From an uncultured Methylococcaceae bacterium (lineage in GTDB: Bacteria > Pseudomonadota > Gammaproteobacteria > Methylococcales > Methylococcaceae), in assembly GCA_903930145.1 (NCBI GenBank), contig CAIYXP010000037.1, forward strand, positions 1 to 38,334: a stretch of DNA of 38,334 bases, given 5' to 3'. A program made the translations under genes and the position numbers. Shown piece by piece: positions 9,325 to 21,927 of the stretch (its first letter is position 1; every line of letters starts with the position of its first letter). The notes beneath the pieces are model-generated. The model saw only the letters and a list, made by a program, of their open reading frames with translations. It ran no database searches and was not told the DNA's origin.

Positions 9325-11820
9325 TCATAACTCCCGCAGGATTTTCATCGGGCTGGAATCGACTACGCCTCGTGTGTGGGCATAACCCGACAAACCCACT
9401 GCTAAGGCTCCAACAAAGGGTGCTAACAGCCATATTTCCCAATGGAATCGCGGTGTGAGGTCGAAAGCCTGAGTAAATAAGGCCCAAGCAATGGCTTCCG
9501 TGGTCGCTGCCGCCAATAGTCCTGACAGCAAACCCAGCAGGACGAACTCCACGCTCAAACTTTTCCGCAACAATTTGCGACTCGCCCCCATGGCCCTCAA
9601 CAGGGCATCTTCTCGCAAGCGTTCATCCAACGTGGCCCTGACCGACGCGAACAATACGGCAAAACCTGCCGCCAATGCGAAAAGCAGGACAAAATCAATG
9701 CTCAAGGATATTTCTTTGAGGATGGTTTGGAATTGCTTCAGCAATTGGTCAACCTCCAACAAGGTCACTGCCGGAAAGCCTTTCGCCAAGCCCACGAGTT
9801 CATTCTTCTTATCCGGCGGACAATAAAAACTGGTCAACCATCGTGCAGGAAACCCATCGAGGCTAGCCGGCGAGAAAATCATGTAAAAGTTGGGTCGCAT
9901 CGTGTCCCATCGCACCGAGCGCAGACTGCTGACTACGGCTTGCCGCTTTTGTCCGTCTATCGAAAAGCCCAGCGTATCCCCTAAATGAATTTGCAGGCTT
10001 TCCGCCAATTTAGCCTCCACCGACACCAAACCGGGCTGAGGGTTTTCCCCCCACCAGTCGCCAGCCGTCAGATGATTGTCATCCGGTGGCATCATGCTGG
10101 AAGTCAGGCTTAAATCGCGCTTGATAGCCCCCTCGCCTTGGGATTCCTTATGCGCGAGGGTGTGGACATCCACCCCATTCACCTCAATGAATCGCCCCCG
10201 GATGATCGGGTAAAAATCGCTGGCGACGATGCCACGTTGGCTCAGATAAGCTTTGAAAGCGGGTAACTCCCCTTCAAATAGGTTCAGGGCGAAATAATTG
10301 GGGGCATTCTCCGGCAGTTGCCTTTGCCATTCCTGAATCAACTCGGTGCGCGCCAACAGACTGACGAGCATGGCGGTGGCAGTCAGGCCAAAGGCCAGAA
10401 TTTGGGTCATGCCTAAGCGGGGGCGACGGGTCAAATTCTGCAATCCGAATCGCCAAGACAGGCTGAGCCTAGGGATCAGCCTGCGCGATGCTTTCAACAA
10501 GGCCAGCACACAGAGTCCAGCCAAGCCTAAAATAGCCAAGGATATGCCTAGCACAATGGCTGTCATCCGCCCATCCCCGGTATACCGCCAAACCAACAGC
10601 CCCAAGGTGACAAACGCCAAGCCATAGACGGTCAAGGCACTGGAAGGCAACGGAGCCAGATCGCGCCTAAGCACCCGTAACGGCGGCAAGCGCTTTAAGC
10701 TCAACACGGGTGGCAACGCGAAGCCAAACAACACAAACAAGCCCGAAGCAATGCCGAACAAGGGCGCATACCAAGCCGGGGCCACCAAAGCATGGGGTAA
10801 AATGCCTTTCAGCCACCAAGCCACCCCTTCTTGAGCCAAGTACCCTAGGGCGCATCCGATCAAACTGAACGCGAACCCAATGACCGAATATTGCAACAAA
10901 TGAATCAGCAAAACATCGCGTTCCTTTGCTCCCATGCATTTCAACAGGGCCGTCAGGTCATAATGCCGCTCACTGTAACGTCTGGCACTCATCGCCACGG
11001 CAACCCCGGCAATCAACACAATGACGATACTGCTCAGCCCCAGATAACGTTCCGCCCGAGACAATGCATTGCCCAATTCCGGGCGGTCTTCGTGTATGTC
11101 CACCAACTGTTGACCGGGATGCAATAGCGGCTTCAGCCAACGCTTGAATGCCAAGATTTGGACAGGTTCACCGGCAAACAAGGCATAATAATGGGCATTG
11201 CTACCGGGTTTGATGACACCCGCCGCGTCCAAGTCTGCCATATTGAACATGATCCTAGGGGACAGGCTATACAAATCCCCTCTTCGATCAGGTTCGTGAG
11301 TGATCAACTGCGTCAGCTTCAATGATTTTTCACCTAGCATGACCGAATCGCCCAGCTTCAACTTAAGCGCCGGCAGCAACCGGCTATCCACCCAAGCCGT
11401 GCCGGGGCTAGGAATTTCCGTTGCCGCCACTTCGGCGGTCAAGTCCGATTGCGTAGTCCGCACGAATCCCCTCAGTGGATAGTTATCACTGACCGCTTTC
11501 GCCCCGGTCAACAACAATTCTTCGTTTTCCACCAAGACGCTAGGGAACTCGACCGTTTTGGCGGTGGCAAGACCCATTTCTGCGGCTTTGCGAAACCAGT
11601 CTTCGGCATAGGTTTCATGCGCACTGACCACTAAATCAGCCGCCAGAAACTCTGCCGCTTGAGTTTCCATCGTCCGAGTCAGGCGATGACCGAACAGGCT
11701 GACCGCCGTGGAAGCGGCGACGGCAATAATCAGCGCCAGCCCGAGTATGTTTAATTCCCCACTGCTCCAATCGCGGCGAACCAGCTTAAGGGCAAGTGAT
11801 ATATTGATGGGGAGTTTCAT
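9325..11820 (-). CDS. FtsX-like ABC transporter permease (YbbP-like)
   Basis: 831 residues, as expected for YbbP. The layout is an N-terminal helix (LNILGLALIIAVAASTAVSLF), a large periplasmic MacB-like domain (about 45-255), an FtsX core of three helices (260-375), a further pair of helices (about 390-440), a second periplasmic domain (470-670) and a final FtsX core (700-825, ending in GYAHTRGVVDSSPMKILREL). YbbP pairs with an ATPase (YbbA) and a thioesterase/lipase (TesA); neither gene is next to it here. It overlaps the hydrolase gene by 4 bp (ATGA), so the two are translationally coupled. Likely role: extraction or release of lipophilic compounds or lipoproteins, substrate unknown. Confidence 0.88.
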   Translation of the reverse strand: MKLPINISLALKLVRRDWSSGELNILGLALIIAVAASTAVSLFGHRLTRTMETQAAEFLAADLVVSAHETYAEDWFRKAAEMGLATAKTVEFPSVLVENEELLLTGAKAVSDNYPLRGFVRTTQSDLTAEVAATEIPSPGTAWVDSRLLPALKLKLGDSVMLGEKSLKLTQLITHEPDRRGDLYSLSPRIMFNMADLDAAGVIKPGSNAHYYALFAGEPVQILAFKRWLKPLLHPGQQLVDIHEDRPELGNALSRAERYLGLSSIVIVLIAGVAVAMSARRYSERHYDLTALLKCMGAKERDVLLIHLLQYSVIGFAFSLIGCALGYLAQEGVAWWLKGILPHALVAPAWYAPLFGIASGLFVLFGFALPPVLSLKRLPPLRVLRRDLAPLPSSALTVYGLAFVTLGLLVWRYTGDGRMTAIVLGISLAILGLAGLCVLALLKASRRLIPRLSLSWRFGLQNLTRRPRLGMTQILAFGLTATAMLVSLLARTELIQEWQRQLPENAPNYFALNLFEGELPAFKAYLSQRGIVASDFYPIIRGRFIEVNGVDVHTLAHKESQGEGAIKRDLSLTSSMMPPDDNHLTAGDWWGENPQPGLVSVEAKLAESLQIHLGDTLGFSIDGQKRQAVVSSLRSVRWDTMRPNFYMIFSPASLDGFPARWLTSFYCPPDKKNELVGLAKGFPAVTLLEVDQLLKQFQTILKEISLSIDFVLLFALAAGFAVLFASVRATLDERLREDALLRAMGASRKLLRKSLSVEFVLLGLLSGLLAAATTEAIAWALFTQAFDLTPRFHWEIWLLAPFVGALAVGLSGYAHTRGVVDSSPMKILREL

Positions 11821-12461
11821 ACGACAACCCGCTCACCGACAAAGGGATTGTATTTACGCTCTATGCCGAAGGTGGAACGCGGGCCATGGCCCGGAATGAA
11901 AGTGACATCATCTCCCAAGGGCCATAGGCGGTTGCGTATGGAGGCGAGCAACTGCCCATGATTGCCCCCCGGCAAGTCGGTGCGGCCTATCGAACCGCTA
12001 AACAACACATCACCCACCAAGGCCAATTTGTCAGCCCGATGGAAAAACACGATATGACCTTGGGTATGACCGGGGCAATGCAAGACTTCCAAAGTTTGTT
12101 TGCCAAAACTCACCGTGTCGCCTTGGGTCAGCCAACGATCCGGGGTGAAGGTTTTGACCGGTGGAAACCCAAACATCACGCATTGTTGCGGTAAGCTGGC
12201 AATCAGGGAGCGTTCGTCACTGTGTGGGCCTTCAATCGGTATGCCTAATTGGGCAGCCAAATCCGCCGTGGCTCCCACATGATCCAAATGCCCATGGGTC
12301 AGCAAGACCTTCACCAGCTTGATGCCTTTAATCTCCACCGCATTCAAAAGCAAATCCAACTCCCCGCCGGGATCGACCACGGCACCCTCCATGGTTTCTT
12401 CGTCCCATAGCAGTGTGCAGTTTTGTTGGAAATCGGTGACGGGTATCGTGAGGGTTTGCAT
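11817..12461 (-). CDS. Metallo-beta-lactamase-fold hydrolase, glyoxalase II-like (YcbL type)
   Basis: 214 residues from the ATG at 12461; the frame can be opened 23 codons earlier, but homologues of this type begin at IPVTDFQQNCTLLW, and the extension MQPCPNTG is not family-like. The metal-binding motif THGHLDHVG (H56, H58, D60, H61) is followed by H-containing LHCPGHTQGHIVF, the GDVLFSGSIGRTDLPGGN segment and FIPGHGP, giving the full set of two-metal ligands. YcbL-type enzymes are small glyoxalase II relatives that hydrolyse thioesters such as S-lactoylglutathione. The stop overlaps the permease start by 4 bp. Confidence 0.88.
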   Translation of the reverse strand: MQTLTIPVTDFQQNCTLLWDEETMEGAVVDPGGELDLLLNAVEIKGIKLVKVLLTHGHLDHVGATADLAAQLGIPIEGPHSDERSLIASLPQQCVMFGFPPVKTFTPDRWLTQGDTVSFGKQTLEVLHCPGHTQGHIVFFHRADKLALVGDVLFSGSIGRTDLPGGNHGQLLASIRNRLWPLGDDVTFIPGHGPRSTFGIERKYNPFVGERVVV

Positions 12462-12932
12462 GATGTCTAAGTCTTTAATGGTAAGGGGCAATGATGGATA
12501 CAGAATGCCAGTGTTGGGGCATGGCTGCAACTGGTAGATGGGTGACTGATATTACGCAGCGATATATTGGAGCGTCAAAGCTTGGTTTGACTTGAGATTA
12601 TAAATGCGAATCTTGCTTCGCCTGTCAAAGCAAGCTTTGACGCTCCAAAACTAGGCCGCGGCGGGACATCAGTGAATGAGTGTATCGCACCTTGGTTAAA
12701 CAACCCGCTTACGCCCTGCTGCCAAACAAAGCCGTAAACCCTGCCCACCCGCTCTCCCTTATCCTGCAAGGAAAAAGCCGAATCGGGCAATTCGAATGGC
12801 GTTTTCATCCAAGCCTTCCAGACTCCGGGGCTTTGGCAGTATCACCGCAAATCTTCCAAACCGGAACCGGCAGGCCGGGATGCTATTCCACTTAACCCGG
12901 CGCGAGAGAAAACCCTAGCGTAAAAGAGCCAT
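12462..12932. other. Intergenic stretch between conflict operon and ycbL-like gene
   Basis: About 470 bp with no convincing gene. It holds an 18-bp perfect inverted repeat (12567-12648) and unstructured GC-rich sequence before the stop of the TIR/FGS gene. Short open frames here (for example on the minus strand 12575-12808) run straight through the repeat and look spurious. In the reading direction of the operon, this is where its transcript would end. Confidence 0.6.
12567..12648. repeat. 82-bp inverted-repeat element, 18-bp perfect arms
   Basis: Left arm TTGGAGCGTCAAAGCTTG (12567-12584) and right arm CAAGCTTTGACGCTCCAA (12631-12648) are perfect reverse complements, separated by 46 bp. The centre contains a second smaller complementarity (AAGCTTGGTTTGAC / GTCAAAGCAAGCTT). 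It looks like a small non-autonomous or REP-type element. Confidence 0.8.
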
Positions 12933-15900
12933 TCATACTGTCCTCGAAAGGCGGAAACCGAGGCCGTAGATGCGGTTCGATGGGTCGTAGTTGATGCGGT
13001 ACGCCGAGCGGCAGTCGTCGGCGACGTCGTACCAGGAGCCGCCGCGAACGACACGGGCGGAGCCGCTCGCGGGGCCACTCGGGTTCTCACTCGTAGGCTG
13101 CTGCTGGTTGTTGTAGGCCGGAATAAGCCCGCTCGCGGGCGTTTCCGGCGAACCCTCTGCTACTTCATCAGCGAGTTGGGTGTAGTAATCTTGTGAGTAC
13201 CAGTCTGCGCACCACTCCCAGACATTGCCGTGCACATCATACAGGCCAAAATGATTGGCGGCCTTGTTCATGACAGGATGCAGCTTGCCCCCGGCATTGC
13301 CGCTGAACCACGCATACTCGGCCAATTGGGTTTCATCATCACCGAAGCACCACCGCCCTGGATTCCCTGCGCGGCAGGCGTATTCCCACTGCGCCTCGGT
13401 GGGCAGGGCATAGGTCTCGCCGGTCTGCACGCTCAACCACTGGCAGTAGGCTCGGGCATCCTCCCAAGAAATGCCGACCACCGGCAAGTCCAAACCATCA
13501 CGGCTGACACCCCGATTGGGATAGTAATCATTCTTGCCGGTTTCCAAGTGATATTCGTTGCCTTGCTCAAGCCATTCCGGCCAGTGCTGTTGGGTGGACT
13601 CGCAAAAACGCCAGTATTCGCCCCAAGTCACCGGGGTGCGGCCCATGGCGAAGGCATTCAGCCTGACGGCGTGGACGGGCTTTTCGCTGTCGTTGCCTGT
13701 TTCGTCGCCCATCAGGAAATCCCCGCCGGGCAGATAGACCATAGCCGGGCTTTCGTTCTCGCCAAAGTCTGTCAGGCGGTCATGGAAGACCTCGTAAGGC
13801 TGGAAGCGCGGCTTGGGCGGGTAGGTCGGCATCCTCATGCCGACATCATCCTCGTCGGCAAGGGGTTGCCGACCTACGGGGGTGCCAAGGGTAACAGGGT
13901 GAAAGCGCCAAGGGCCAGTCCTCGAAAGGCGGAAACCGAGGTAGATGAAGCGGTTCGAAGGGTCGTTGTCGATGCGGTACGCCGAGCGGCAGCGACCGGC
14001 AACGCTGTTCCAGGAGCCGCCGCGAACGACACGGTCAGAGCCACTCGCAGGGCCATTCGGGTTTTTACTCGCAGAGCCACTCGAACTCTGCTCGCTGGCG
14101 CTCGCAGGGTGCTGCGGCTTGCCCATAAACTGCTGGTAGTAATCTTTTGAGTGCCAGTCTTCGCACCATTCCCACACGTTGCCATGCATGTCGTGCAGTT
14201 GCCAGGCATTGGGCTTTTTCTCCCCTACGGGATGGGTCTGGCCGTTGGCGTTGTTGGAATACCAAGCGTAATCGCCCAAATGGGACTCGTCGTCGCCATA
14301 GCAATAGCGTGTCGTACTCCCGGCCCGGCAGGCGTATTCCCACTCGGCTTCGGTGGCGAGCCGGTAGTGTTCGCCGGTCTGTTGCCCTAGCCACTCGCAA
14401 TAGGCTTGGGCATCCTCCCAATTGACGTTGATAACGGGCCGACTATCCCTGCCCCAGCTTCGATCATCGGGTTGTTTCCGCTGGGTCGCCAAGCAAAAGC
14501 GATCGTATTCGGCAAACGTCACCGGATATTGGCCGATGGAAATAGCATCCACCCGCACCGGGTGGGCGGGCTTTTCGTGATTATATGGACTGTCGTCCTG
14601 CCCCATTATGAATTCGCCGCCGGGCAGCCAGACCATGGCCGGGCCTTCTGTGCCGTCAGCAAGGAAGTCACGCAAGCCTGCGATGAATTCGGGTTTTTCT
14701 GGTTCCCACGCTCCAGCGTGGGAACCGGCTTGGGCCGTTTCACGGTCCGATGGCGCAGGATCGCCGCTGTCTTCGTTTCCCCTTGGGAGCGTGGGAACGA
14801 TAGAACCCTCCGATGGTTTGCGTTCCCGAGATGGAGCTTGGAACCGTGCACCATTCAAGCATTGGTCAACCCTTGCGCGCAGAATGGCGAACTCATTTTT
14901 TTCGAGATCATCAAGGGTCAGATGTTGCATATCAGCCAGGAATGCAAGAAGCTTTGCGGCATTTTGGGAAATGTCCTGGTATTTATAGAATTCTTGGAGT
15001 GTTTCTGCCGCCAGATTTGCAAGATTGATTTTGCGGATGAGTTCCTCCATTTGCTGCACCTGATTTGACCAGTAGTCGAGATAAGTGAACTGCTCGGAGA
15101 ATCTGCTCACTCGCGCATCCGCGAGAACAACCGGACAAACCCGCTGATGAAATCCTTTGTTGCGGTAGACTTCGAGCAATTCGTACATACAGTATGGCGA
15201 ACGGAGATACTTGTCGCTGATGACGACGATGACACAGTGCCCACGTCCGATCTCCTTCATGAAAGAGCTAATCGGGGCTGTGTAAGGGATATTATTAGTA
15301 TCTCGCCTGACATCGTAATCATGCGACTTAAGGGATTCCGCAATACGATTTACGATATCCTCAGAACTGCCCCTAGCATAAGAGATGTAAACTACTCGTG
15401 AAGGCGATTGGTTTAGATGCTGCTTAAAAGCTGGCTGTTCCATCGAAAAGTGGCGCAAATTAATCGCAGCGACATTATGCCGTACAGCATCAATGAAATT
15501 TGCCTGAAGATTTTTTCCATAGTCTGATTGATTGCGATCAACCCGATAGCGAAAAATCTCAATGTTGTCCAGAAACTTTGGATCAGCATCAAAATAACTA
15601 GATACCAAGATGATGCAACAATCATTGCAAGACTTCTTGATTCTGAGAGCGAGGTCAGCACCCGTGTAGTCGTCTTCCGCATCACCTTCTAGCTTCAGAT
15701 CGATGATCGCCACACCGGGATTTAAGCGAAGGATTTTTTTTAGCGTCTCATCAATATCGATCTTGCTTGGATTTGCACGAGAGGGTATAGGCATAAACGC
15801 ATGAAGCTCGCACTGAATAGACTCCGGGTGTAACCCGCCCCCCTCACGCCTAGGTGGCTTTGCTGGTTTAGCACCAGTGATGCCCCACACCAATTTTTCC

Positions 15901-17210
15901 AGTCCAAGATCGGTCAATCCGTCGCGCAGATCGACCCAGGTAAAGCTTCGGAGAAATAGCGGTAACTTTGGTGCGGCGTGGGTGCCGGGCAGCAGGACGG
16001 GAATCACCGGCAATTTTCGATTAACGAACTCGGATAAACAGGCACGCATTTCCGGCTCTTCCCATGGACCCAAGCCACTCTCCCCAATCAATACAGCCGC
16101 AGCCTGTGTCGTTTGAATGACCGTTTCCAGCGCTTCCTGCCATGGGCGTCCCGGCACGAGTTGCTCTTCATCCAACCATACTCGCAAGTCATACGACTTT
16201 AATTCTTGGGCCAGCTTTCGCACTATTGTCTTGTCTTGGCTGTTGTGGCTGAGGAAAACATGGAATGACTCACTCATGTTGGTTTCCTGTTGCCCTTGCA
16301 GGAGCGGCCTACGGGCTACACCCGTAGACCCTCCACCGTAGACAACCTTGATCTTGTGCGCAATATATTCCTTCATAATTAGCAAAGTGTGGGGATTATC
16401 GTCAATCAGAACAACATTGATTTTTCGTAACGGAGTTATTTTTTGCTGGTTCCCAAGCTGGATTTGGATTCCAAGCGGGTGCTTGGCGCTCCCTGATCGA
16501 CTTGGTAAGCTTGGCAACTCCACCCCCGCCACTCGGATCACCGAACCGGACTCCCTGCCCGACTTTGCCAAATCCATCAAACCATTAGGTTGGGCCAACA
16601 ACCGTGCCATATCGGACGCATAACGCAGCAAGTCGGGAAATTCGTCCAGTTGTGCCGCGAGTTCCTGGGTGATCCGCACCAGCCGCGCCAGTTCGGCTTG
16701 TGGAATCGCTGGGTTCAATTGCGCGGTGGCATCAACGGCTGGCAGCAGGTGATCGCGGAAGGTTTCGGCGATTTCCGTCACTGCCTCTTCGCGCTTTTCT
16801 TTGAGGAAAACCATTGCCGACCATTGCTCGGCTTGCAAGCTGTCTCGACTGAGGTGGGGGGTGGTGCGGCTGAGTTGGTGGACGTACCGGATCAACAAGC
16901 GGGCTGTTTCCTCCATTGCGGTTTCGCCGATTTGCCCGCGCATCTGGCCGATCAGATAGGCACGGACTTCTGGGTCAAAGGCGAATTGCTCATAACCCAC
17001 GGGCCGGCACAGTTCCGATAGCAGCAAATCGGCCTCCGCCACCCATGGCACTTCGCCGCGCAGGAAATGGTTGCGCAGGTAATTGAGCAATTCCGGGGTC
17101 AGGATCAGCGGCAAGGCTGCGTAATAGGCGAGCTTGAGATGCGGTTCGCCGAATTGTCGGGTAAACCGGGAAACTTTCTCCTTGGCGATTTCGGTTAGGT
17201 CGGTAGTCAT
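12933..17210 (-). CDS. Multidomain conflict protein: helical N-domain, receiver domain split by a TIR domain, second TIR, two C-terminal FGS domains with DGR-like variable regions
   Basis: 1425 residues; ATG at 17210 with GAGGGA upstream. 1-210: helical domain (HLKLAYYAALPLILTPELL...PWVAEADLLLSELCR), also seen in other bacterial FGS proteins. 262-291 and about 466-585: two halves of a response-regulator receiver fold (VVLIDDNPH with D270/D271; VAIIDLKL with D504; ILVSS). 312-446: TIR domain (SFHVFLSHNSQDK; W383-x3-E387 catalytic-type glutamate) lying inside the receiver. 603-735: second TIR (RVVYISYARGSSEDI, SPYCMYEL, E677). 840-1097 and about 1138-1423: two FGE-sulfatase-like (C-type-lectin fold) domains, each with GNVWEWC and ending RVVRGGSW...GFRLSRT. 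The linkers contain translated palindromic repeats. Last gene of the five-gene operon. The FGS domains probably bind ligand at the variable C-terminal surface; the TIRs may cleave NAD+ (inference from conserved Glu). No membrane segment. Confidence 0.9.
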   Translation of the reverse strand: MTTDLTEIAKEKVSRFTRQFGEPHLKLAYYAALPLILTPELLNYLRNHFLRGEVPWVAEADLLLSELCRPVGYEQFAFDPEVRAYLIGQMRGQIGETAMEETARLLIRYVHQLSRTTPHLSRDSLQAEQWSAMVFLKEKREEAVTEIAETFRDHLLPAVDATAQLNPAIPQAELARLVRITQELAAQLDEFPDLLRYASDMARLLAQPNGLMDLAKSGRESGSVIRVAGVELPSLPSRSGSAKHPLGIQIQLGNQQKITPLRKINVVLIDDNPHTLLIMKEYIAHKIKVVYGGGSTGVARRPLLQGQQETNMSESFHVFLSHNSQDKTIVRKLAQELKSYDLRVWLDEEQLVPGRPWQEALETVIQTTQAAAVLIGESGLGPWEEPEMRACLSEFVNRKLPVIPVLLPGTHAAPKLPLFLRSFTWVDLRDGLTDLGLEKLVWGITGAKPAKPPRREGGGLHPESIQCELHAFMPIPSRANPSKIDIDETLKKILRLNPGVAIIDLKLEGDAEDDYTGADLALRIKKSCNDCCIILVSSYFDADPKFLDNIEIFRYRVDRNQSDYGKNLQANFIDAVRHNVAAINLRHFSMEQPAFKQHLNQSPSRVVYISYARGSSEDIVNRIAESLKSHDYDVRRDTNNIPYTAPISSFMKEIGRGHCVIVVISDKYLRSPYCMYELLEVYRNKGFHQRVCPVVLADARVSRFSEQFTYLDYWSNQVQQMEELIRKINLANLAAETLQEFYKYQDISQNAAKLLAFLADMQHLTLDDLEKNEFAILRARVDQCLNGARFQAPSRERKPSEGSIVPTLPRGNEDSGDPAPSDRETAQAGSHAGAWEPEKPEFIAGLRDFLADGTEGPAMVWLPGGEFIMGQDDSPYNHEKPAHPVRVDAISIGQYPVTFAEYDRFCLATQRKQPDDRSWGRDSRPVINVNWEDAQAYCEWLGQQTGEHYRLATEAEWEYACRAGSTTRYCYGDDESHLGDYAWYSNNANGQTHPVGEKKPNAWQLHDMHGNVWEWCEDWHSKDYYQQFMGKPQHPASASEQSSSGSASKNPNGPASGSDRVVRGGSWNSVAGRCRSAYRIDNDPSNRFIYLGFRLSRTGPWRFHPVTLGTPVGRQPLADEDDVGMRMPTYPPKPRFQPYEVFHDRLTDFGENESPAMVYLPGGDFLMGDETGNDSEKPVHAVRLNAFAMGRTPVTWGEYWRFCESTQQHWPEWLEQGNEYHLETGKNDYYPNRGVSRDGLDLPVVGISWEDARAYCQWLSVQTGETYALPTEAQWEYACRAGNPGRWCFGDDETQLAEYAWFSGNAGGKLHPVMNKAANHFGLYDVHGNVWEWCADWYSQDYYTQLADEVAEGSPETPASGLIPAYNNQQQPTSENPSGPASGSARVVRGGSWYDVADDCRSAYRINYDPSNRIYGLGFRLSRTV
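12940..13055 (-). repeat. DGR-like variable region of FGS domain 2 (candidate VR)
   Basis: 116-nt segment coding for RVVRGGSW to FRLSR at the extreme C-terminus. It aligns without gaps to 13918-14033: 100 positions identical and 16 different, nearly all in the codons after GGSW, after YRI and after SNR. Twelve of the 16 have A in one of the copies. Both copies end in the same 23-nt block (CTCGGTTTCCGCC... to ...GAGGAC), which could be the homing-initiation site. Confidence 0.75.
13821..13877. repeat. In-gene palindromic repeat (GTAGGTCGGCA / TGCCGACCTAC) forming the FGS1-FGS2 linker
   Basis: Arms 13821-13831 and 13867-13877 are perfect 11-bp reverse complements; a smaller hairpin GTCGGCAT-CCTC-ATGCCGAC sits inside (13825-13844). 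The element is read in frame as part of the linker between the two FGS domains (about residues 1112-1131). Confidence 0.75.
13918..14033 (-). repeat. DGR-like variable region of FGS domain 1 (candidate VR)
   Basis: The partner of 12940-13055, at residues 1060-1097. The product reads GGSWNSVAGRCRSAYRIDND against GGSWYDVADDCRSAYRINYD in domain 2. The rest of the two FGS domains shows many synonymous differences, so identity at all 100 non-variable positions of this segment stands out. Confidence 0.75.
14701..14726. repeat. In-gene palindrome GGTTCCCACGCT / AGCGTGGGAACC between TIR2 and FGS1
   Basis: Perfect 12-bp arms with a 2-nt centre. Degraded relatives follow at about 14783-14800 (TTGGGAGCGTGGGAACG) and 14822-14847 (GTTCCCGAGATGGAGC...). 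Together they are translated as the linker around residues 788-840, which has no recognisable domain. Confidence 0.8.
16275..16288 (-). promoter_or_regulatory. Internal Shine-Dalgarno and ATG at the start of the first TIR domain
   Basis: On the minus strand AGGAAA (16288-16283) stands 5 nt before an in-frame ATG (16277-16275), which begins MSESFHVFLSHNSQDK. This is a better site than that of many real starts in the window. It either lets a shorter TIR-first product be made or is a relic of a free-standing TIR gene. Confidence 0.65.
16309..16327. repeat. Palindrome CTACGGG-CTACA-CCCGTAG upstream of TIR1
   Basis: Perfect 7-bp arms around a 5-nt loop, translated as GSTGVARR in the fusion protein. 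It marks the left edge of the TIR cassette. Confidence 0.7.
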
Positions 17211-17319: not shown

Positions 17320-18399
17320 TCACTTCTGCCTCCCTCGTGTCTGTCCACGCAAAGCGACAATGGCATTGCCAAAGCCTTCCCGGTCCATTTGGAACATCGG
17401 GGCAAGCCGGGCGATGAATTGCGCCGATGTCCCCGCCCAGCGCGTTTGAGGCATGGGGTTCAGCCAAGCCAGTTGGGTCGTCCTGCGCTTGACCTGACTG
17501 AGGAATTCGGCAGTCGCCCGGATGCGCTCGTTGCGTCTGTGGCCCCGTGCCGCACCTGCGTCGCTGACCACCAATACGCTGGTGTCCGGGCCGATCCCAT
17601 CCAGCAGATTGTCCCGCGAAAACGGCTGCATCAAATGCGGGTCGCGAAAAATATGCTCGGGCGGCACATTCTGAAAATACGCCAAATCGACTCGCTGAAT
17701 TTGGCTTTTCTGCCCGTCGCAAGCGGTTTCCACCAAATCGCGGGTGAAGCGGTGGAACGGAACCATGGAACCGCCTTGGTCGATCAACAACACCAAGTGG
17801 TTTTTATTCTGCATTCGGCGGTCATAAACCGGGCAGAGAAAAAAGCCGATGCGCGCAGACTGCTCGACGGTGGCGGCGATATTCAGCACATCGCGCGGTC
17901 CTTCCTTGACGGTTCGGCGCAAATATCGCCATGCATAGACCATGGAACGGCGCGACAAAGGCCAGTAGGCGCGTAGCTCCGGGCCGGTGATGTCCTGCAC
18001 CGGGCGCATCGGCGTTTTGACTGGCAACGGAGCCGGTTCGACCCTCAAAGGCGAAGGCGCGGCGGGTGGCGGGATGTTCACCGGCTGAACCGGCGGCTCA
18101 GGCGGTGGCGGAATCGGCCTGTCCACGGGTGGCTCGGGCTTGACGGGTTCTGCCGTCGGGGTATGCCGGGCAACCTTCACCACTACGTCGTTGAAAACCT
18201 CATTAAAATCTTCTTCGGCTTCGCGTGCATGACACCACAGCATCCGGGCGATTTCGCACAAGGCTTCCGGCCCTTCCACCCCGAAACCGCCTGCCACGGC
18301 CCGGTAAGCCGCCAGCAGTTCACCTATCCCTAAGTTCAAGTCTTTGCGTAAGCGTTCAAACACCGCCAATAGGATGGTTTGGGCTTCGTAGTCGTTCAT
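17320..18399 (-). CDS. von Willebrand factor A (vWA) domain protein, partner of MoxR
   Basis: 359 residues from the ATG at 18399; an earlier TTG (18432) would start inside a palindrome and is less likely. 1-75: helical domain (LGIGELLAAYRAVAGGFG). 80-135: proline-rich linker. About 200-355: vWA domain with a metal-ion-dependent adhesion site of the form D207-Q-G209-G-S211 (LVLLIDQGGSM) and D280 in VLVVSDAGA. Such vWA proteins act with a MoxR ATPase, the vWA part docking or recruiting the client. It lies between the MoxR gene and the TIR/FGS gene in one operon, so the likely client is the TIR/FGS protein (inference). Confidence 0.85.
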   Translation of the reverse strand: MNDYEAQTILLAVFERLRKDLNLGIGELLAAYRAVAGGFGVEGPEALCEIARMLWCHAREAEEDFNEVFNDVVVKVARHTPTAEPVKPEPPVDRPIPPPPEPPVQPVNIPPPAAPSPLRVEPAPLPVKTPMRPVQDITGPELRAYWPLSRRSMVYAWRYLRRTVKEGPRDVLNIAATVEQSARIGFFLCPVYDRRMQNKNHLVLLIDQGGSMVPFHRFTRDLVETACDGQKSQIQRVDLAYFQNVPPEHIFRDPHLMQPFSRDNLLDGIGPDTSVLVVSDAGAARGHRRNERIRATAEFLSQVKRRTTQLAWLNPMPQTRWAGTSAQFIARLAPMFQMDREGFGNAIVALRGQTRGRQK

Positions 18400-18419
18400 G
18401 GTTGGGTTGTCACAGGCCA

Positions 18420-18440
18420 ACTCGGTTTTCAAAACCGAGT
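18420..18440. repeat. Palindrome ACTCGGTTTT-C-AAAACCGAGT between MoxR and vWA genes
   Basis: Perfect 10-bp arms with a 1-nt centre, just upstream of the vWA ATG. It could form a hairpin in the mRNA and modulate vWA translation. Confidence 0.7.
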
Positions 18441-18456
18441 CGGACTAATGGATGAC

Positions 18457-19434
18457 TTATGGCTTCGCGGCATAGCGATCCCAATCGGCATGGATTTTAA
18501 ACAGCAGTTCGGGATAAGGCAGCTTTGCCTCGCCCGACAAGCCGGAAAGTTTGCCGAAGCTGCTCATCGCTTTCAGCCAATCCAGAAACTCGCTGGTTCC
18601 GGGCTTTTTGTGCAAATCGCCCTTGTTGCGTATCGCCAAGAAACGTTCACAGGCCGCATCCGTCAGTTCATCCGTGGGCGGTGTGATGGCCTCGCCCGAT
18701 TTTTTAATCGAGTAATGAGCCTTGATGATGTCCTTGAGCCGCTCTTTGTCCGCTGGAAATTCGATGTAAAAATACACGCAACGGCGCAGAAACGGCTCGG
18801 GCAGATTGCCTTTCTCCTTGTTGCTGGTGATGATGACGATGGGCGGGTGTTTGGCGATGATGGGGGGCGTGTCGTCATCGGCTTGTGTTATCTCAAATTT
18901 CCAAGGCTCTTCCAAGACCGTCAGCAAATCATTGGGAAAATCGATGTCGGCTTTGTCAATCTCGTCAATCAACACCACCGCCGGACATTCCTGTAAGCGA
19001 AATGCCTCGCCGAGTGCGCCGTAATTGACGTAATCCATGGGCTTTTCAGGATTTCTACCCGTCGTGGCTTTGCCAGGCAGTGCGCTTTTCGCACCGAACA
19101 GGCCCGGCTTGTTAGCTTGCTTCAAATGCACATCGTGCAAGCGCAGAATCGAATCGTAGGTGTAAAGCCCGTCTTGCGCCCGGCTGGTGGAACGCACCGG
19201 CCATTCATACAAGGGCAAGCCAAGTTGATGCGCCACATGCCGCGCCAGCCGGCTCTTGCCGCACCCCGCTTCGCCTTCCAACAGCAAGGGCCGTTGCAGA
19301 AAGATGGCAAGATTAACCGCCGTCACCAAATTTTCAGCGGCGACATAAGGCTCGGGGTTTTTGGGTGCGTCGGGATGTCGGCCTGAAGGGGGTCGGTAGT
19401 CTTCGTGCAAGTTGAAACTAGGCGATGCGGTCAT
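18457..19434 (-). CDS. MoxR-family AAA+ ATPase
   Basis: 325 residues. Walker A is GEAGCGKS (54-61), Walker B VVLIDEIDKA (D157, E158), sensor 1 IITSN (N205), and the arginine-finger segment LPEPFLRRC (R217/R218), followed by a helical lid domain. MoxR ATPases form hexamers that remodel partner proteins, typically with a vWA protein, which is the next gene (about 57 bp downstream). GAGAGA precedes the ATG at 19434, 15 bp after the upstream gene. In conflict systems of this class the MoxR/vWA pair is thought to be the NTP-dependent gate (established for the class, inferred here). Confidence 0.93.
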   Translation of the reverse strand: MTASPSFNLHEDYRPPSGRHPDAPKNPEPYVAAENLVTAVNLAIFLQRPLLLEGEAGCGKSRLARHVAHQLGLPLYEWPVRSTSRAQDGLYTYDSILRLHDVHLKQANKPGLFGAKSALPGKATTGRNPEKPMDYVNYGALGEAFRLQECPAVVLIDEIDKADIDFPNDLLTVLEEPWKFEITQADDDTPPIIAKHPPIVIITSNKEKGNLPEPFLRRCVYFYIEFPADKERLKDIIKAHYSIKKSGEAITPPTDELTDAACERFLAIRNKGDLHKKPGTSEFLDWLKAMSSFGKLSGLSGEAKLPYPELLFKIHADWDRYAAKP

Positions 19435-21393: not shown

Positions 21394-21927
21394 CTACCCG
21401 TTTTCCATCATGTCGGCCAGTTCAACCGCCCGGTTGCCAACCTGCGTGGCCCATTTGCTTGAGAGCATCTCCTCTGCCGCGCCGGAATAATCGCCATCCT
21501 GCAAATTCGACAGCATGCGGGTGAACCCCAGAAGCCCGTCCACCCCCAGATTGAACGCCATTGAAATCAGCACATTCTGCCTTGCCGTCGAGAGGCCCCT
21601 CCACCATGGCAACCGCGCATCAAGCTGTTGGGTAACCCGGTCAATGTCATGGCGCAACAGCATCATGGCTTCCTCCCGGGTGATGCCGGTGTCGTCAAGG
21701 TTCCTGCCCACCCCGATGGTCAGTTTGTTGCTGGCATCCGTGTAGGGTCTCAATTGCAAGCCTTCATGCTGGATCAGCAGTTCCTCGATGCTGTAGGAAC
21801 TGTAGGCCGAGGGCGTCGAAACGTGGGGCGACCCGCTGTGGGCCTTTTTGTGGGCGCAGGCTGAAATCGACAGGTACACGAACAATAGGGCTGCAAACTT
21901 TAGCTGTGTGTGTTGTCTAGTTGACAT
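21394..21927 (-). CDS. Lipoprotein lysozyme (glycoside hydrolase 24, phage-type muramidase)
   Basis: 177 residues. The N-terminal signal ends in a lipobox LSISAC (C24), so it is likely membrane-anchored in the periplasm. The catalytic triad of T4 lysozyme is intact with exact spacing: E55 (HEGLQLRPYTD), D64 and T70 (NKLTIGVG), i.e. E-x8-D-x5-T. It cleaves the MurNAc-GlcNAc bond of peptidoglycan. It is not surrounded by other phage genes, so it may be a domesticated endolysin or a lysis effector. The next gene on the minus strand, 176 bp away, is the first gene of the conflict operon. Confidence 0.88.
   Translation of the reverse strand: MSTRQHTQLKFAALLFVYLSISACAHKKAHSGSPHVSTPSAYSSYSIEELLIQHEGLQLRPYTDASNKLTIGVGRNLDDTGITREEAMMLLRHDIDRVTQQLDARLPWWRGLSTARQNVLISMAFNLGVDGLLGFTRMLSNLQDGDYSGAAEEMLSSKWATQVGNRAVELADMMENG

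What the first reader, a model, noticed from the sequence alone, without database searches (positions are those of the whole stretch)
12940..14033. Two FGS domains in one gene end in a DGR-type hypervariable segment
Two 116-nt segments (12940-13055, 13918-14033) encode the C-terminal ends of two FGE-sulfatase-like domains. They are identical at 100 positions and differ at 16; 12 of the 16 have A in at least one copy and all 16 can be explained by an A in a common template. Differences cluster in codons at the ligand-facing positions of the C-type-lectin fold (after GGSW, YRI and SNR). The rest of the two domains has diverged, with many synonymous changes, so the identity outside A-sites suggests both were rewritten from one template. 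The shared 3' block fits a homing-initiation site. Two variable regions in one protein is uncommon.
Basis: partly seen in the sequence, partly recalled or inferred. Interest (0 to 1): 0.92.

Follow-up and report, generated by a model that had tools for sequence, protein, structure and literature searches.

The report
Hypermutated twin sensor without its mutator
A probable bacterial defence sensor carries two segments that were rewritten by a targeted hypermutation machine; the machine and its template sit right behind the same gene in a sister species but were not found in this draft genome, so the sensor may now be frozen.

Summary
The two 116-nt segments are real and are variable regions (VRs) of a diversity-generating retroelement (DGR). 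They end two FGE-type C-type-lectin domains of one minus-strand gene (12933-17210, 1425 aa, two TIR domains). A template guessed from them led to matching templates in two same-genus genomes. Against one, 14 of the 16 A/B differences fall on template adenines (27 of 116 sites; p=5e-9). Three templates end GAGTAC, 13 VRs GAGGAC, as expected of IMH*/IMH. In sister genome G001 the same five-gene operon (EAD9 adaptors, MoxR-like ATPase, vWA, three-VR target) is followed by an HRDC gene, an intact RT and the template. In the window the match stops 16 nt past the target gene; neither template nor cognate RT was found in the 97.4%-complete draft, though three other DGRs were. The cognate RT looks insertion-interrupted in G006, lacks its catalytic core in a second G001 copy, and was not found in G003 or G004. 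Best reading: DGR-written VRs, probably orphaned and frozen; an unassembled cassette is the main rival. Tandem VRs in conflict-system sensors are published, so this is a new member of a known kind.

The parts
12933..17210 (-). Target gene, 1425 aa: conserved N-terminal segment, two TIR domains, two FGE-sulfatase (C-type-lectin type) domains each ending in a VR
   Evidence: ORF; Pfam FGE-sulfatase E=3.4e-106 (2 stretches) and TIR_2 E=1.9e-39 (2 stretches)
12940..13055 (-). VR A (gene 3' end)
   Evidence: against the G001 template 11 of 27 A sites changed, 3 of 89 others (65, 66 and the IMH base 114)
13918..14033 (-). VR B (end of first FGE domain)
   Evidence: 13 of 27 template-A sites changed, 5 of 89 others (33, 39, 65, 66, 114)
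12940..12962 (-). IMH-like 3' block of VR A (CTCGGTTTCCGCCTTTCGAGGAC)
   Evidence: Only two copies in own assembly at up to 3 mismatches; the three templates of the genus have T for the second-last G
13918..13940 (-). IMH-like 3' block of VR B
13920..14633 (-). First FGE/C-type-lectin domain (core as delimited)
12942..13739 (-). Second FGE/C-type-lectin domain
   Evidence: best PDB hit is DGR variable protein TvpA (2y3c), E=2.1e-28
15891..16259 (-). TIR domain 1 (residues 318-440)
   Evidence: Pfam TIR_2; no TIR hit in the G001 relative
15156..15389 (-). TIR domain 2 (residues 608-685)
   Evidence: Pfam TIR
16506..17210 (-). N-terminal segment, residues 1-235, shared with the three-VR target of G001 (77.5% aa)
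17320..18432 (-). vWA (CoxE-like) protein, upstream in operon
   Evidence: Pfam; 79% aa identical to G001 counterpart
18457..19434 (-). MoxR-like AAA+ ATPase
   Evidence: Pfam AAA_5 (the name MoxR-like is by operon context); 79% aa
19450..20553 (-). EAD9 adaptor + inactive STAND protein
   Evidence: Pfam; 57% aa
20486..21217 (-). DUF4062 + EAD9 adaptor protein
   Evidence: Pfam; 77% aa
12531..12932 (.). Spacer where the cassette would stand: operon homology with G001 ends near 12917; G001 continues with HRDC gene, RT and template, the window with a metallo-beta-lactamase-fold gene (11817-12530)
   Evidence: no RT or HRDC match in the window by tblastn at E up to 1

Best explanation
The two segments are DGR variable regions. 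SHOWN: they are copies of one adenine-rich template type whose template, reverse transcriptase and HRDC accessory gene lie directly behind the same operon in a sister species; their differences fall on template adenines (14 of 16); they keep the IMH-type end. INFERRED: error-prone reverse transcription of the template RNA put random bases at adenines, and the cDNA replaced both VRs of the gene by retrohoming at the shared 3' block, giving one protein two independently varied C-type-lectin faces. The protein probably works as a sensor: the varied faces bind an invader-derived or surface ligand and pass the signal through the MoxR-like ATPase, vWA and EAD9 partners, with the fused TIR domains as effector or signalling parts. 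In this assembly the template, the cognate RT and its HRDC partner were not found, and the operon match ends just past the target gene, so the receptor is most likely orphaned: kept as a fixed receptor after loss of the mutator.
For: DGR origin: (14 of 16 differences at template A, p=5e-9); position 114, left open in the pattern, is T in the 3 templates and G in the 13 VRs of the genus. Cassette in relative. Same operon: (five proteins, best stretches 57-79% aa). Syntenic VR in G004: 14 of its 16 differences from VR A at 28 template-A or AAC sites, 2 at 88 others, and 13 of 250 in the 3' flank. Against a G003 relative: dS 0.07 in the VR, 0.49 outside. Orphan state: no template, no cognate RT (best 48%), HRDC only as a 30% match at another DGR, while three other own DGRs were found with template and VRs. 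Cassette decay in relatives: insertion-like break in G006, catalytic deletion in G001:C317. More non-A departures in VRs of genomes without template: 7 in 4 VRs against 2 in 9 (p=0.005, counts).
Against: The genome is a draft of 542 contigs, 97.4% complete, and DGR repeats can break assemblies: in G006 the RT lies across a contig break. Two Lamprocystis drafts likewise gave VRs but no match above 83% to the ppb02 template, so a missing template may be common in drafts. VR A has no non-A departure once positions 65/66 are put down to a different own template. The low VR dS against G003 means homing after that split, so loss would have to be recent or repeated. The drift count is small, its columns (48, 65, 66, 72, 114 left out) were chosen after seeing the data, and the own template is unknown. 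The sensor role is by analogy; no ligand or phenotype was tested.
Confidence: 0.68

Rival explanations
1. Active DGR in trans: the cassette (HRDC-RT-template) exists in this organism but lies in an unassembled or unbinned stretch, perhaps on a mobile element, and still diversifies both VRs.
For: Draft assembly; the G001 cassette lies beside MobC and relaxase genes; the G006 cassette is broken across contigs; VR dS against G003 is low; VR A shows no clear non-A drift; two Lamprocystis drafts also lack a template match.
Against: RT, template and HRDC are all missing in the own assembly, and template and cognate RT likewise in G003 and G004 (HRDC not searched in those whole genomes); partial template matches should have been seen (one search listed matches down to 14 nt); two C-to-T departures in VR B.
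Confidence: 0.25
2. One of the three other DGR reverse transcriptases of this genome writes these VRs.
For: Three DGR-type RTs with templates exist, and one template has VR-like segments on several contigs.
Against: Their templates differ from the window VRs at 27 or more non-A sites, so they cannot be the source; the 3' block is not shared.
Confidence: 0.04
3. Ordinary domain duplication with gene conversion and positive selection at ligand-binding residues, no retroelement.
For: The two domains are paralogous.
Against: Differences concentrated on template A, closely matching templates with an RT beside one of them in relatives, the fixed IMH/IMH* base, and the same pattern in several species.
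Confidence: 0.02

Closest known systems
Thiohalocapsa PB-PSB1 DGR 4/5 type targets (tandem VR-bearing CLec domains in MoxR/vWA ternary conflict systems; PMC10907252: abstract, sections 5, 7, 11 part 1 and passages seen)
   Same: Single target gene with tandem CLec domains each with a VR, next to MoxR ATPase, vWA, adaptor and effector domains; degenerate loci with missing or broken machinery are described there
   Different: Window target has two TIR domains instead of an N-terminal vWA and two CLec domains instead of three; EAD9 adaptors; host belongs with Methylococcaceae records; no complete cassette of this class found in the assembly
Cognate cassette of Candidatus Methylumidiphilus alinenensis AMbin10 (G001:C160, taken to be QJPH01000196.1 by equal length and match positions)
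   Same: Same operon and template/VR type
   Different: Complete: HRDC, RT and template present, three VRs, no TIR hit, relaxase and MobC next door
Treponema denticola TvpA (PDB 2y3c)
   Same: Best PDB match of the second domain; VR aligned without gaps over 46 residues
   Different: Single-domain variable protein with one VR (passages of PMC6328139), not fused to TIR domains
Chromatiaceae ppb02 and Lamprocystis VRs with the identical 20-nt block
   Same: Same IMH block, up to 2-3 VRs per ORF; ppb02 has an AAC-type copy ending GAGTAC and an HRDC match upstream of it
   Different: Other genera; copies differ from the genus template at fixed non-A positions

Membership tests
Diversity-generating retroelement target | VR differing from a template at template adenines | tested here: met
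   14 of 16 A/B differences at template A; template taken from relatives
Diversity-generating retroelement target | Shared 3' IMH block, with template IMH* differing | tested here: met
   GAGGAC in 13 VRs, GAGTAC in 3 templates of the genus; ppb02 template likewise. Homing itself not tested
Diversity-generating retroelement target | C-type-lectin (FGE subtype) variable protein with C-terminal VR | tested here: met
   By sequence: Pfam; TvpA best PDB hit. Structure prediction too poor to use
Complete DGR in this genome | Template repeat in the same genome | tested here: not met
   draft assembly
Complete DGR in this genome | Cognate DGR reverse transcriptase | tested here: not met
   best 48% identity, belonging to another DGR with its own template; intact cognate RT in G001
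Complete DGR in this genome | Accessory gene (HRDC type here) | tested here: not met
   only a 30% match at C257, next to another DGR RT
Active DGR | A-site diversity within a population | not testable with these tools
   No reads available; only species comparison
vWA-MoxR-VMAP ternary conflict system | MoxR-like ATPase and vWA protein in operon | tested here: met
   (AAA and vWA by Pfam; MoxR-like by context)
vWA-MoxR-VMAP ternary conflict system | VMAP-C protein | tested here: not met
   No VMAP-C hit among the six window proteins or four more (it does ring in G006)

The most novel reading that the evidence does not exclude
Locked receptors: in this genus the hypermutator is repeatedly switched off (an insertion-like break in the RT, deletion of its catalytic core, apparent loss of the whole cassette in three species) while the hypermutated sensors stay under purifying selection, so that once-random receptor variants become fixed, inherited receptors.
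Probability: 0.3. Interest if true: 0.66.

Novelty: new member of a known kind. Interest (0 to 1): 0.46.

Why it matters
It adds a genus of the methane-oxidising Methylococcaceae to the bacteria whose conflict-system sensors are hypermutated. It also gives a set of closely related species with cassettes at different stages: intact, interrupted, deleted, not found. That makes a question testable that a single genome cannot answer: what becomes of a hypermutated immune-type receptor once its mutator is lost.

Tried and rejected
Own-genome templates: the three resident DGR templates were compared with the window VRs and rejected (27 or more non-A mismatches).

Phage or plasmid origin: the 20-nt block has no exact match in viral contigs; the G001 RT-template stretch has 4 partial plasmid matches (at most 34% of the query at 73% identity).

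Structure: the AlphaFold model of the second domain was poor (mean pLDDT 46.6) and was not searched or used.

Spacer repeat 12567-12648 as a scar of cassette loss: it is a genome-wide inverted-repeat element (55 matching places listed, itself included, with only 40 of 142 candidates scored), so it proves nothing here.

A receiver-like domain around the first TIR was suspected from memory of the motif; Pfam gave no support.

Mended readings: (a) a note of mine says that VRs of genomes with a template have no non-A departures; this was wrong, since one VR of G001:C317 has them at 12, 65, 66 and 94. In one search that VR was caught in another register and left out of the 12 tabulated. (b) sorted templates from VRs by base 114 itself, so its column 114 is circular; the fair count is, where that base was left open, with the template nature judged by unmutated A sites. 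(c) Rows for minus-strand loci (L025, L033, L036, L039, L042, L048) were read on the wrong strand and not used.

12 of 16 differences containing A, as an argument: not discriminating.

Full report
OBSERVATION. The gene is on the minus strand, 12933-17210, 1425 aa. The two 116-nt segments, 12940-13055 (VR A) and 13918-14033 (VR B), agree at 100 positions and differ at 16. Both end an FGE-sulfatase domain. Between the two domains, outside the VR, 115 of 207 aligned residues are identical and 46 of these 115 have a synonymous codon change; inside the VR it is 3 of 29 (Fisher p=0.002; the third is the last codon, whose changed base lies just past the 116 nt). So the VRs were equalised more recently than the rest, apart from the variable codons.

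PREDICTION AND TEST. I put AAC codons at the variable places and searched seven genomes of the same genus, the own one included; six had some match at E up to 1e-6, many of them to other VR types. Near-identical AAC-rich copies came up in G001 (C160 and C317) and G006 (C166). Of 116 template positions 27 are A. VR A departs from the G001 template at 11 of 27 A sites and 3 of 89 others; VR B at 13 of 27 and 5 of 89; A and B differ from each other at 16, of which 14 at template A (p=5e-9). The others are 33 and 39 (C to T in VR B), 65/66 (AC in all four VRs of G000, G003 and G004, GG in the three templates, pointing to an AAC codon in their lost or unseen template), and 114. In one search, where that base was left open, all 16 copies in the genus were listed: 3 have T, 13 have G. 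The three with T are the copies with all A sites unmutated; the 13 with G are VRs. That is how the IMH/IMH* pair of known DGRs behaves (recalled; IMH* is named in a passage of PMC6328139).

THE CASSETTE. In G001:C160 the order on one strand is DUF4062-EAD9, EAD9-iSTAND, AAA ATPase, vWA, a target ORF of 1218 aa with three VRs, an HRDC gene, the RT (398-residue open frame, first methionine at 62, YMDD at 277) and the template. HRDC genes stand between target and RT in G006 and in G001:C317 too. The window has the same five genes in the same order; best stretches are 57-79% identical. The nucleotide match runs through the target's stop and ends 16 nt later, near 12917. Beyond it the window has a spacer and a metallo-beta-lactamase-fold gene; G004 has the same arrangement.

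ABSENCE IN THE OWN GENOME. With the VR as query, down to E=10, no template; the 3' block with up to 3 mismatches only at the two VRs; the G001 RT has its best match at 48% identity; the HRDC protein only at 30%, next to another DGR. As a control, the same assembly holds three other DGR-type RTs (judged by the motif and the template beside them), each with an AAC-rich template nearby and VRs: for C257 three on its contig and five VR-like segments on C88, C61 and C173; one each for C40 and C528 (which scanned seven held stretches, not the genome). The genome is a 542-contig draft, 97.4% complete, so absence is likely, not proved. Two Lamprocystis drafts also gave VRs but no match above 83% to the ppb02 template.

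DECAY IN RELATIVES. Of seven genomes of the genus, five carry the block (G000, G001, G003, G004, G006) and two do not (G002, G005); none of the 294 other genomes of the order that were drawn had it at up to 2 mismatches (5 of 301 in all). Templates were found only in G001 and G006. The RT of G001:C160 is open. The second G001 copy, C317, is 260 nt shorter, and the missing part (reference 617-874) holds the IGNLTSQ and YMDD motifs. In G006 the RT stops at the end of contig C229 and resumes at the start of C166; both contig ends carry the same 141 nt in inverted orientation, and the same bases of the RT (CTCTACCC, 6-8 of them depending on where the repeat begins) occur on both sides, as a target-site duplication would. 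That end sequence occurs at four places in G006, these two included. This fits an insertion element with long terminal repeats, though the element itself is not assembled. In G003 and G004 the best RTs are at most 52% and 42% identical to the G001 RT.

DRIFT. I counted departures at non-A sites from the G001 template, leaving out columns 48, 65, 66, 72 and 114: 7 in the four VRs of G000, G003 and G004, 2 in the nine VRs of G001 and G006 (counts, p=0.005). Both of the two are in the second VR of G001:C317, whose RT copy is broken; its changes at 65/66 were left out too. The columns were chosen after seeing the data and the own template is not known, so this is support, not proof. Against it: VR A has no such departure.

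TIMING. Between the window and a partial G003 gene (345 aa, not shown to be at the same locus), dS is 0.49 outside the VR and 0.07 in it; dN/dS outside is about 0.3, in the FGE core about 0.2, so the gene is under purifying selection and homing went on after that split. Against the syntenic VR of G004, 14 of 16 differences are at 28 template-A or AAC sites, 2 at 88 others; the 250 nt after the VR differ at 13, while the 194 nt before it, with the poorly aligned linker, differ at 48 with 19 gap columns. Different VR alleles in one ancestral population would also explain the G004 comparison, so it does not prove homing after that split.

FUNCTION. The closest solved structure by sequence to the second domain is the DGR variable protein TvpA (2y3c, E=2.1e-28), with the VRs aligned without gaps. 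[quoted passage not shown] The varied codons of the window fall in that C-terminal segment; I could not map them on a model (poor). The neighbours, MoxR-like ATPase, vWA, EAD9 adaptors and TIR domains, are of the kind found in putative conflict systems (PMC10907252: abstract, sections 5, 7 and 11 part 1, and passages seen; PMC7159879: listing only). A VMAP-C protein was not found among the window proteins searched (six, four more), so I call it ternary-like. PADLOC gave only TIR-type and weak hits for the window's operon. That it senses invaders is inference.

NOVELTY. PMC10907252 already describes single targets with three tandem VR-bearing CLec domains in such systems, and degenerate loci without key machinery. 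So the kind is known. A search of the paper library for diversity-generating retroelement with Methylococcaceae found nothing; in a search with methanotroph terms none of the 12 papers listed, of 282, held the DGR term. PMC8144416 was seen by passages only; its catalogue may hold these loci.

Noticed in passing
own genome C257, C40, C528 (L022, L018, L017); VR-like segments also on C88, C61, C173: Three other DGRs in this genome; the C257 template has three VRs on its own contig and five VR-like segments on three other contigs with 4-11 non-A mismatches.
   Followed up: partly
window 12567-12648: Inverted-repeat (MITE-like) element; at least 55 matching places in the own genome, itself included, one of them on the C40 DGR contig (not all candidates scored).
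   Followed up: partly
L055 290-2012 (G001:C160): MobC/NikA-like and relaxase genes next to the intact cassette and conflict operon: the whole unit may be mobile.
   Followed up: no
L085-L087, L090, L091, L094: The identical 20-nt IMH block in Lamprocystis and Chromatiaceae ppb02, with up to 2-3 VRs per ORF, while none of 294 sampled genomes of the window's order outside its genus had it: transfer between distant lineages is likely.
   Followed up: partly
L056 8022-15713 (G006:C229): The same three-VR C-terminal part is joined to a different operon there, with a trypsin-VMAP-C protein: domain shuffling around the VRs.
   Followed up: no
window residues 236-835 of the 12933-17210 product: About 600 residues with two TIR domains sit between the N-terminal segment and the lectin-type domains, where the G001 relative has no TIR hit.
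   Followed up: partly
window 21394-21927: Phage-lysozyme-family gene just upstream of the conflict operon.
   Followed up: no
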